Shown one piece after another: positions 53,590 through 55,434 of a stretch of DNA of 64,000 bases. The stretch is from Desulfocapsa sp. (GTDB lineage Bacteria > Desulfobacterota > Desulfobulbia > Desulfobulbales > Desulfocapsaceae). The stretch lies in NCBI GenBank assembly GCA_022712895.1, contig JAFLJS010000023.1, positions 122,196 to 186,195 on the forward strand, in the 5' to 3' direction. The notes under the pieces were generated by a model. That model saw nothing but the letters and a program-made list of their open reading frames with translations, ran no database searches and was not told where the DNA came from. Position 1 is the stretch's first letter. The number at the start of each line of letters is the position of its first letter. Made by a program: the position numbers and the translations under genes.

Positions 53590-53922
53590 ATGAGCGACCA
53601 AGCTTCCGCGGCAGTTATCCCCACCACAAACCAGGCAGACATCGACGAGTTAGCGAGCCTGTGCAAAGCCCTCGCTCACCCCGCCCGCATCCTAATTCTC
53701 AAGCACCTGCTTGCAGAAAAACAATGCATCTGCGGACGTATAGTTGAGCTTCTTCCTTTAGCGCAATCAACAGTCAGCCAGCACCTGAAAATTTTGAAAG
53801 AAAGCGGGCTGGTTCAAGGTGAAGTGGAAGGCCCAAAGATGTGTTACTGCGTGGACAAAACAAAACTGGCATCAATCTCTACTGCAATGTCCAGTCTATT
53901 TTCCTCCGAGGATGATCAGTGA
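53590..53922 (+). CDS. ArsR/SmtB-family metalloregulator
   Basis: 110 residues, a winged helix with recognition helix AQSTVSQHLKILKESGLV. The Cys46-x-Cys48 pair in KQCICGR corresponds to the alpha-3 metal/arsenite site (ELCVCDL in ArsR). Cys85-x-Cys87 in KMCYCV lies in the wing and Cys25 is a further possible ligand. It is therefore likely to respond to As(III), Hg(II) or a related thiophilic metal. AAGGAG precedes the ATG. The stop overlaps the GTG start of hgcA (GTGA), so the two are translationally coupled. ArsR-like genes upstream of hgcAB are known in other methylators. Confidence 0.92.
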   Translation: MSDQASAAVIPTTNQADIDELASLCKALAHPARILILKHLLAEKQCICGRIVELLPLAQSTVSQHLKILKESGLVQGEVEGPKMCYCVDKTKLASISTAMSSLFSSEDDQ

Positions 53923-55127
53923 AAAAAAAATGCGAACAACAAAATGGCCCGGAGTTTCCAAACTTGCAACCCATAGGGCAGTTTAAAATGGGACAAGCAA
54001 AAATGCCTCTACAACCCGACAACGTAGAAGACGCACCCTGCTGAGGCCCTAAACCAGATCCCAGGTCAGGGATCAATGAGTTACCTGGATACGCTATTAA
54101 ATCGTATGTGACAGGCTTTACTGAAACAGGGAACGGGGCTGTCCCCCAAGTCAAAACCGTCTTAGATTTCAAAGATCAACTTGGCACTCTGAGGGCACGT
54201 AGCGGTATTGCCCGAAACCAGTACAAACTCAATCCAGGGCTCTACTGTGTCGGCTCCCCGACTCCCGAATCGCCGGTTCTGGTAACGGCCAATTACAAAC
54301 TCAGCTTTGATGCACTACGCAAGGAACTGACAGATCTTGCTGTATGGATACTGGTGATTGATACTCGTGGGATCAACGTATGGTGCGCAGCCGGCAAAGG
54401 CACCTTTTCTGCTAATGAAATCGCCTTGCAGGTACAAAGGGCAGGGCTTGAAAAAATCGTATCTCACAGAGAACTTATTCTTCCGCAGTTTGCTGCGAGC
54501 GGTGTTGCCGCGTACCAACTCAAGAAAAAATGTGGATTTAAAGCGATTTTCGGCCCGCTACGGGCAAAAGATATTCCACAGTTTCTGCAAAACAGCAATA
54601 AAGCTGACGAAAAAATGCGGACCGTTACTTTTTCCTTTTCTGAACGGCTGGTTCTCGTGCCAGTTGAGATCGTACTGGTATGGAAGTTTTTCGTCTTAAT
54701 CACTGTTATTTCTTTTGCCATTTCCGGTATTGGCCAGGAAATATATTCCCTCCAGACGATGTTAACTAGAGGATTGGTAGCTGGCGGTGCAACATTTTCT
54801 GCAATCTTCGCCGGAGCACTGCTTATGCCCATACTACTGCCCTGGCTTCCAGGCCGTCAATTCTGGTTTAAAGGAGCTGTTGTTGGTGCCTTTTCTGGTC
54901 TGGCATATGTTTTGACAATTATGACCGGGGCAGGGATTGTAGAAAAAGCCGGGATCTGGTTCTGGATAGTAGCTGCATCATCATACATGGCTATGAACTT
55001 TACAGGAGCCACTCCTTTCACCTCCCTTTCCGGTGTTGAAAAGGAAATGCGGAAAGGATTACCAGCCCAGCTCATTTGTACAATTGCAGGCCTTTGCCTT
55101 TGGATCACTGCCCCCTTTTTAGGGTAA
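53919..55127 (+). CDS. hgcA: HgcA, corrinoid mercury methyltransferase, probable selenoprotein (in-frame TGA at codon 42)
   Basis: HgcA carries a methyl-corrinoid whose methyl group is given to Hg(II). The corrinoid-ligand Cys lies in the invariant NVWCAAGKGTF (Cys156 here), the TANYKLSFDALRKEL segment precedes it, and four or five membrane helices end the protein, as usual. The frame starts at GTG 53919, overlapping the arsR stop with GAGGA about 7 bases upstream. It runs without interruption except one TGA at 54042-54044 in the context Ala-Pro-Cys-TGA-Gly-Pro-Lys-Pro, and continues in the same frame to 55125. The only start after the TGA, GTG 54108, lacks a ribosome binding site and would drop the PGYAIKSYV segment. 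With the SECIS-like hairpin just after the TGA, I read it as selenocysteine: 402 residues with a Cys41-Sec42 pair. Alternatives are a nonsense mutation, a sequencing error for TGC/TGT, or a 41-codon leader. Confidence 0.85.
54042..54074 (+). promoter_or_regulatory. SECIS-like hairpin following the in-frame TGA of hgcA
   Basis: TGA (54042-54044), 18 bases, then loop AGGTCA (54063-54068) closed by a perfect 6-bp stem GATCCC (54057-54062) / GGGATC (54069-54074). The E. coli fdhF SECIS has loop AGGUCU at 17 bases from its UGA; the GGU that SelB contacts is preserved here. A competing stem CCAGGT (54061-54066) / ACCTGG (54083-54088) would disrupt it. Confidence 0.8.
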
Positions 55128-55140
55128 GAGAGAAGATACC

Positions 55141-55434
55141 ATGAAAGATTTTCGATATATTGACGGAGCTGCCATTCTGACCTTAAATAAAGAGGCTTGT
55201 ATTGGCTGCGGCATGTGCGTGACGGTATGTCCTCACCGCATTTTTGCATTGCAGGACAAAAAAGCAAAAATTGTTGATTTGAATGCCTGCATGGAATGTG
55301 GAGCATGCGCGACCAACTGTCCGACGGAGGCTATTTTCGTCAATCCGGATAATGGCTGCGGATGTGCATCCATGATCATTAACAGCTGGATCTCCAAAGT
55401 CAGAGGCAAGCAGGTAAATGTCTGCAGTTGCTGA
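55141..55434 (+). CDS. hgcB: HgcB, mercury-methylation ferredoxin
   Basis: 97 residues with two [4Fe-4S] motifs: Cys20/23/26/30 (CIGCGMC...C) and Cys50/53/56/60 in CMECGAC, the HgcB signature. Cys73 (in NGCGC) occupies the position of the conserved extra Cys of HgcB. The protein ends Cys-Ser-Cys (95, 97) where others have a vicinal Cys pair thought to hand over Hg(II). HgcB reduces the HgcA corrinoid to Co(I). It starts 13 bp after hgcA behind GAGAGAAG. The stop is TGA right after the last Cys; no SECIS-like hairpin follows, so I take it as a true stop. Confidence 0.95.
   Translation: MKDFRYIDGAAILTLNKEACIGCGMCVTVCPHRIFALQDKKAKIVDLNACMECGACATNCPTEAIFVNPDNGCGCASMIINSWISKVRGKQVNVCSC

What the first reader, a model, noticed from the sequence alone, without database searches (positions are those of the whole stretch)
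53919..55127. Mercury methylase HgcA appears to be a selenoprotein
Seen: the hgcA frame starts at a GTG overlapping the arsR stop (GTGA) behind GAGGA and is open to the normal HgcA end except for one TGA at 54042-54044, between a Cys codon and Gly-Pro. The residues just after the TGA (GPKPDP...LPGYAIKSYV) read as coding sequence joined to the conserved HgcA core, and the later GTG (54108) has no ribosome binding site. A SECIS-like hairpin with loop AGGTCA lies 18 bases after the TGA. Known: bacterial Sec insertion needs such a hairpin right after UGA, and selenolates bind Hg(II) more tightly than thiolates. From memory, HgcA homologues often carry a Cys-Cys-Gly-Pro motif near the N-terminus; Sec would replace the second Cys. 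Inference: the Cys41-Sec42 pair receives Hg(II) from the HgcB C-terminal cysteines or positions it at the methyl-corrinoid. I do not know whether a Sec-HgcA has been reported.
Basis: partly seen in the sequence, partly recalled or inferred. Interest (0 to 1): 0.97.

Follow-up and report, generated by a model that had tools for sequence, protein, structure and literature searches.

The report
Mercury methylase with a selenocysteine arm
This bacterium's gene for the mercury-methylating protein HgcA contains an in-frame UGA that is predicted to be read as selenocysteine in a tail that is predicted to be flexible and would likely bind mercury; about a third of the HgcA genes sampled in its phylum have a UGA at this place, and the database copies of such genes compared here start after it, so the tail has likely been easy to overlook.

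Summary
Observation confirmed; the selenoprotein reading is well supported but not new in kind. Haft & Gwadz (J Bacteriol 2023; not held, seen only as cited in PMC13188914 and PMC11588087) already predicted selenocysteine (Sec) in HgcA ('CU') and HgcB ('GVGU'). The window is a new member.

Added here: TGA beside a Cys codon in this tail in 79 of 216 relatives' loci, and in 39 of 108 readable N-termini of an evenly drawn phylum sample. Sec genes with different downstream peptides keep a hairpin in the same register after UGA that Cys homologues lack: >=6-bp stem with centred loop in 32/44 and 26/36 against 0/37 and 3/42; the window's hairpin alone does not beat shuffles. The genome has selA-D. 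HgcA of the model methylator ND132 is on record as 338 aa starting at the codon column after the UGA; its nearest held relatives with readable N-termini have the UGA.

The tail is predicted disordered; its role as a Hg(II)-binding arm is inference.

The parts
53590..53922 (+). arsR-type regulator gene directly upstream, stop overlapping the hgcA start (GTGA)
   Evidence: ORF; PF01022 44.6 bits; NF033788 72.5 bits
53908..53912 (+). GAGGA, likely ribosome binding site of full-length hgcA
   Evidence: sequence
53919..55127 (+). hgcA, 402 residues when the UGA is read as residue 42
   Evidence: NF040863 427.7 bits over residues 75-400
54042..54044 (+). in-frame TGA, predicted Sec42, in the motif APC-U-GPKPDPRSG
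   Evidence: same column TGA in relatives
54057..54074 (+). SECIS-like hairpin GATCCC-AGGTCA-GGGATC, loop 18 bases after UGA
54108..54110 (+). GTG at which the open frame after the TGA begins (339 aa); database proteins of near relatives start here or nearby
54384..54386 (+). codon of the cap-helix Cys156 (equivalent of ND132 Cys93)
   Evidence: ND132 numbering from PMC7305189
55141..55434 (+). hgcB, ferredoxin partner, with Cys (not Sec) at the GCGC site (Cys75, column of the GVGC/GVGU Cys or Sec of relatives) and a C-terminal CSC
   Evidence: NF040864 106.5 bits

Best explanation
The window carries an intact hgcA gene whose in-frame UGA (codon 42) is predicted to be translated as selenocysteine, so that the mercury methylase would bear a Cys41-Sec42 pair on a tail that is predicted to be flexible and that likely binds Hg(II) and would bring it to the corrinoid and to HgcB. 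Shown by sequence and calls: the frame, the TGA, its equivalence to the second Cys of the CCG(P/S) motif of Cys-form HgcA, a hairpin at a fixed distance that marks the Sec forms as a group, the Sec genes in the genome, and purifying selection on the codons after the TGA. Predicted: that SelB reads the UGA through and that the tail is disordered. Inferred: that the Cys-Sec pair (Cys-Cys in other species) is a soft-metal ligand that captures Hg(II) and hands it to the HgcB cysteines or the methyl-cobalt centre, with selenolate binding Hg more tightly than thiolate. The ArsR-type gene that overlaps hgcA presumably co-regulates it. The confidence given is for the Sec reading; for the Hg-binding role alone I would say about 0.45.
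For: TGA beside a Cys in the tail in 79 of 216 loci (74 CU, 5 UC); 39 of 108 readable N-termini in an evenly drawn Desulfobacterota sample; 20 of 22 Pseudodesulfovibrio genomes with an HgcA match have a full-length hit with one TGA. Hairpin, >=6-bp stem with loop centre 22-27 nt from the U of UGA: 32/44 in the CUGP..PR group (window included) and 26/36 in the other Sec genes, against 0/37 for Cys genes at the same column and 3/42 for Cys genes whose last CC lies elsewhere in the tail. The stem register is shared although the peptides differ. Synonymous-shuffle z -0.95 (79 Sec) against -0.02 (79 Cys), Mann-Whitney p 1e-6, rows not independent. Alignment A1: 83.7% of cells paired against 28-64% when slid; 9 cells changed on both sides, 0 of 500 shuffles reach it. 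Own genome: selB 384 bits, tRNA-Sec 77 bits, selA 613 bits, selD 373 bits. selB over cut-off in 38 of 38 further Sec-HgcA genomes of the phylum sample. A Shine-Dalgarno run of 5 or more precedes the first start after the TGA in 0 of 79 Sec loci. Sec tails hold 1.9 Cys and 0.09 CC pairs (78 loci) against 4.1 and 1.48 in tails of pairs without any Sec (92 loci), as expected if one Cys-Sec pair does the work of several Cys pairs (partly so by definition).
Against: No protein-level evidence. The window's own hairpin does not beat synonymous or dinucleotide shuffles, and no Rfam family matches it. On A1 two of the five measures are not above shuffles (pairs changed on both sides 3, 112 of 500 reach it; further pair types 6, 134 of 500), and only 15 of 79 Sec genes pass p<0.05 singly (4 of 79 Cys genes). 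Of 23 Sec-HgcA genomes tested, three (G009, G012, G014; metagenome-assembled) lack a selB match over the cut-off; G001 has no tRNA-Sec over the gathering score, nor has G022 (L055, TGA further upstream), which lacks selB over the cut-off too. selB is near-universal in HgcA genomes (78 of 80), so co-occurrence discriminates little. Counting all starts in the stretch after the TGA, 8 of 79 loci do have one with a Shine-Dalgarno run of 5 or more. HgcA made in E. coli from ND132 hgcA methylates Hg in lysate (PMC11588087, passages); if that construct is the recorded 338-aa form, a Sec tail is not strictly needed. The Hg-binding role rests on chemistry and motif, not on a test.
Confidence: 0.85

Rival explanations
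1. UGA is a true stop: a short leader peptide ends there, and HgcA is made from the GTG at 54108 by re-initiation; the leader and the UGA would regulate hgcA.
For: Databases hold the short form: P0002 339 aa and ND132 P0146 338 aa. HgcA expressed from ND132 hgcA in E. coli lysate methylates Hg (PMC11588087, passages).
Against: The codons after the UGA evolve as protein (pN/pS 0.41 over 21 codons) and align with the same segment of uninterrupted Cys-form HgcA such as P0120 (PCCGPKPGPPSSPYEKPGY). A Shine-Dalgarno run of 5 or more precedes the first start after the TGA in 0 of 79 Sec loci. Of the 95 stops in that stretch 88 are TGA; a plain stop should use all three codons.
Confidence: 0.08
2. 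UGA is decoded as another residue (Cys, Trp or Gly) through a suppressor tRNA or a changed code.
For: None specific.
Against: arsR and hgcB in the window both end with TGA in the expected place. The hairpin marks the TGA forms and the Sec genes are present.
Confidence: 0.03
3. Sec is incorporated, but the Cys-Sec pair serves redox chemistry (a selenenylsulfide switch that protects or releases the corrinoid or HgcB thiols), not Hg binding.
For: Cys-Sec pairs are redox-active in many selenoproteins (recalled). The motif order can be UC as well as CU (5 of 79 loci).
Against: Tails of pairs without Sec carry 2-4 CC pairs in 46 of 92 loci, which fits metal binding better than one redox centre; HgcAB's substrate is Hg(II).
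Confidence: 0.3
4. Assembly error or decayed gene.
For: None.
Against: A TGA beside Cys recurs in the tail in 79 of 216 loci from many assemblies, with the HgcA frame continuing after it.
Confidence: 0.01

Closest known systems
Sec-HgcA predicted by Haft & Gwadz 2023 (NF040863, motif CU; as cited in the PMC13188914 table and PMC11588087)
   Same: Same protein family, same Cys-Sec motif type
   Different: That paper is not held, so its species list, hairpin analysis and remarks on ND132 could not be compared; the window is a further member
Cys-form HgcA with N-terminal CCG(P/S) motif (e.g. P0120)
   Same: Same column, flanks and downstream core
   Different: Cys in place of Sec; the centred hairpin after the codon is rare (0/37 and 3/42); often several CC pairs in the tail
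Sec-HgcB (GVGU, NF040864)
   Same: Partner protein, Sec in the same complex
   Different: Found in 20 loci whose HgcA has no Sec; one clade only
Bacterial SECIS of E. coli fdhF (recalled, from no call)
   Same: Apical loop AGGUC at about the same distance after UGA (recalled)
   Different: 6-bp stem in the window; no Rfam model matched

Membership tests
HgcA (NF040863) | Profile match over curated cut-off | tested here: met
   427.7 bits, cut-off 275
HgcA (NF040863) | Cap-helix Cys in N(V/I)WC(A/S)AGK (motif recalled; Cys93 of ND132 in PMC7305189) | tested here: met
   NVWCAAGK, Cys156
HgcA (NF040863) | hgcB directly downstream | tested here: met
   NF040864 106.5 bits, cut-off 99
HgcA (NF040863) | Mercury methylation activity | not testable with these tools
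   needs culture work
Bacterial selenoprotein gene | In-frame UGA in a column occupied by Cys in homologues | tested here: met
Bacterial selenoprotein gene | SECIS hairpin just after the UGA, conserved among Sec forms | tested here: met
   group level:
Bacterial selenoprotein gene | SECIS hairpin beyond chance in the window's own sequence | tested here: inconclusive
Bacterial selenoprotein gene | selA, selB, selC, selD in the genome | tested here: met
Bacterial selenoprotein gene | Selenium in the protein | not testable with these tools
   needs 75Se labelling or mass spectrometry
Sec-HgcA (CU) of Haft & Gwadz 2023 | One CU in HgcA | tested here: met
   motif per PMC13188914 table; window APC-U-GP

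The most novel reading that the evidence does not exclude
Selenium is a working part of mercury methylation: in a large share of methylators one selenolate per HgcAB complex, in the HgcA tail or at the HgcB GVGU site, is the Hg(II) ligand and replaces several Cys pairs; and the model enzyme of P. mercurii ND132 has been studied without its Cys-Sec tail because the recorded start lies after the UGA.
Probability: 0.4. Interest if true: 0.85.

Novelty: new member of a known kind. Interest (0 to 1): 0.55.

Why it matters
Methylmercury is the form of mercury that builds up in food webs, and the details of how Hg(II) is methylated in the second half-reaction are open (PMC11588087, passages). A Cys-Sec arm that is absent from recorded protein sequences would be a concrete candidate for handling Hg(II). 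It would tie methylation to selenium supply, and would mean that reference sequences used for constructs and models begin too late in many methylators. The comparison of Sec, Cys and Sec-HgcB forms makes the question testable.

Tried and rejected
Mutual exclusion of Sec in HgcA and HgcB as a rule: 0 of 74 pairs with Sec in HgcA and a readable HgcB site have Sec in HgcB (5 more Sec-HgcA loci had no readable site), and 20 of 20 Sec-HgcB loci have no Sec in HgcA. But Sec-HgcB is one clade with 5.8% of the tree length, expected to hold 1.1 of the 19 HgcA changes, P(0)=0.33, so it is a lead only.

Co-occurrence with selB as a test: too common to discriminate (44 of 50; 78 of 80; the two without are Cys-form or no-Sec genomes, one of them 67% complete). 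A second batch of 34 genomes, none with a CU/UC locus, did not complete.

Rfam scan of the region: no match. PDB sequence search: four hits, all corrinoid/iron-sulfur protein subunits, none covering the tail. A Sec at the end of HgcB: hgcB ends in TGA in 129 of 197 loci against 82 of 212 for hgcA, but the 12 extensions printed share no sequence that I could see, so these are taken as true stops.

ND132 DNA: no genome with an identical HgcA among the 36 of the genus or the 288 of the family held (best 69% identity), so the UGA in ND132 itself is unverified. One search's 216 loci dropped three duplicates (L116, L101, L104); L111 could not be anchored; two duplicate pairs in the Cys class (L045/L126, L087/L129) were not dropped. 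The 79 Sec loci include one (L083) whose CU lies at another place in the tail. One search used 210 rows (short or masked ones left out, window added). Labels were given by script from the last 80 codons before the anchor, not by eye for each locus.

Full report
What is there. The encoded protein matches NF040863 (HgcA) at 427.7 bits over residues 75-400, and the next gene matches NF040864 (HgcB) at 106.5 bits. The HgcA match thus begins after the tail at issue.

Is the TGA a codon? A scan for relatives kept the best 80 named loci of 574. In 21 of these 80 the column of the window's TGA is also TGA, preceded by Cys and followed by Gly-Pro; two more have CU or UC elsewhere in the tail. Of the other 57, 38 have a Cys codon exactly at the column, 18 do not, and one runs off its contig. 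I then searched 395 Desulfobacterota genomes drawn evenly; 115 have HgcA, giving 117 loci. Of these, 9 have no readable N-terminus. Of the 108 others, 39 have TGA beside Cys, 6 have TGA near the column without a neighbouring Cys (L196 among them looks non-coding), 40 are labelled CC, 14 single Cys, 5 none, and 4 have some other TGA. Over all 216 loci examined (three duplicates dropped) there are 74 CU and 5 UC. Stops in that stretch are 88 TGA, 4 TAG and 3 TAA, and 84 of the 88 TGA lie 54-61 codons before a core anchor. In Pseudodesulfovibrio, 22 of 36 genomes have a match and 20 have a full-length hit with one TGA, all 20 CU; of the other two, one gene is split over contigs (its N-terminal piece also has one TGA) and one is a fragment (motifs, two of the 20 being the duplicates of L020 and L053).

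The hairpin. Numbering from the U of UGA, the window pairs 16-21 with 28-33 around loop AGGUCA. The same register gives a mean of 4.82 Watson-Crick pairs of 6 in 44 genes of the CUGP..PR type (window included), 3.72 in the 36 other Sec genes, and 1.73 and 1.67 in 37 and 42 Cys homologues taken at the second Cys of their last CC pair. A stem of 6 or more with its loop centred at 22-27 occurs in 32/44, 26/36, 0/37 and 3/42. The Sec groups encode different peptides there (such as GPKPDPRAGV and PPKKRAQVSPP), so protein conservation alone does not explain a shared register. Synonymous-codon shuffling gives mean z -0.95 for 79 Sec genes and -0.02 for 79 Cys genes (p 1e-6, related rows), with 15 of 79 and 4 of 79 below 0.05 singly. 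The window alone is not significant (p 0.17-0.27). In alignment A1 (44 sequences, 43 distinct) 83.7% of cells pair; 9 cells changed on both sides and the covariation score were reached by 0 of 500 shuffles, while the number of pairs changed on both sides (112 of 500) and of further pair types (134 of 500) were not unusual.

Sec machinery. The window's genome has selB (384 bits), tRNA-Sec (77 bits), selA (613 bits) and selD (373 bits, itself with one TGA). Among 38 further Sec-HgcA genomes of the phylum sample all 38 have selB over the cut-off. Among 23 such genomes of the named set 20 do; the other three are metagenome-assembled. tRNA-Sec is over the gathering score in 23 of the 25 genomes searched, the misses being G001 (L009) and G022 (L055).

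Start site. Codons after the UGA evolve under purifying selection (pN/pS 0.41 over 21 codons against 0.34 in 100 core codons, 946 pairs). A Shine-Dalgarno run of 5 or more precedes the first start after the TGA in 0 of 79 Sec loci and some start upstream of the TGA in 36 of 79; of all starts after the TGA in that stretch, 8 of 79 loci have one (several starts per locus were tried, so the numbers are not strictly comparable). Database proteins nevertheless start there. The proteins of D. multivorans (P0183, 335 aa), P. indicus (P0134, 334 aa), P. sediminis (P0136, 342 aa) and P. cashew (P0144, 335 aa) were found identical, after the first residue, in DNA that has an in-frame TGA in PC-U-GPKPDP upstream. 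HgcA of P. mercurii ND132 (P0146, 338 aa, contig 3,858,580) starts MDGF, at the Val(GTG)-Asp-Gly-Phe of these relatives, which matches the published numbering Thr60, Thr66, Val91, Cys93 (PMC7305189, passages). Of the 14 rows nearest to it (L101 and L020 are one gene), 13 show the CU motif and one, L107, begins at a contig end after it. ND132 DNA is not held, so the UGA in ND132 is inference.

What it likely does. AlphaFold2 gives residues 1-58 pLDDT under 50, with strands from residue 64: an arm, predicted flexible, carrying Cys41-Sec42 some 20 residues from the core. Tails of pairs without any Sec carry on average 1.48 CC pairs and 4.1 Cys (92 loci); Sec-HgcA tails carry 0.09 and 1.9 (78 loci); tails of Sec-HgcB pairs 0.30 and 2.2 (20 loci). 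I infer a soft-metal arm that catches Hg(II) and passes it on, one Cys-Sec pair doing the work of several Cys pairs. That HgcA expressed in E. coli from ND132 hgcA methylates Hg in lysate (PMC11588087, passages) suggests, if that construct is the 338-aa form, that the arm is at most an aid under those conditions.

What is known. [quoted passage not shown] Searches pairing HgcA, HgcB or hgcAB with selenocysteine, selenoprotein, selenium or UGA showed no further treatment in the listings and passages I saw. The finding is therefore a new member of a known kind.

On a FastTree tree of 210 HgcA cores, Sec/no-Sec in HgcA needs at least 19 changes and Sec in HgcB one, so the HgcA site appears to switch often.

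Noticed in passing
L037, L044, L046, L048, L050, L052, L056, L064-L066, L068-L071, L073, L076, L077, L080, L081, L084 (hgcB downstream of hgcA): HgcB has TGA in GVG-U, with a near-identical hairpin (TTATCCAGGTCTGGATAA-like) after it: >=6-bp centred stem in 18 of 20 against 9 of 177 Cys-HgcB, though mean folding energy of the 45 bases is the same (-11.0 and -11.1); the residues are IQV in all 20. None of these loci has Sec in HgcA.
   Followed up: partly
L060, L145, L173, L188, L194: The order is UC instead of CU in the HgcA tail.
   Followed up: partly
L149, L178, L189, L205, L212: TGA near the column without a directly neighbouring Cys (GU, LU); coding status less sure.
   Followed up: no
L055, L083: A TGA in CUPPKAPPG about 20 codons further upstream in Desulfuromonas-type HgcA, possibly a separate origin.
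   Followed up: no
L147 (G000:C44:78532-79473): selD of the window's genome itself has one in-frame TGA, possibly a Sec-SelD.
   Followed up: no
window 55351-55434: Window HgcB has an extra Cys (NGCGCAS where many relatives have PGVGCAS) and ends CSC where many end CC.
   Followed up: no
hgcB of 197 loci: hgcB ends in TGA in 129 of 197 loci (111 of these right after a Cys codon) against 82 of 212 for hgcA.
   Followed up: partly
L048, hgcB: A second TGA in ASC-U-DSGCC near the HgcB C-terminus where relatives have Gly.
   Followed up: no
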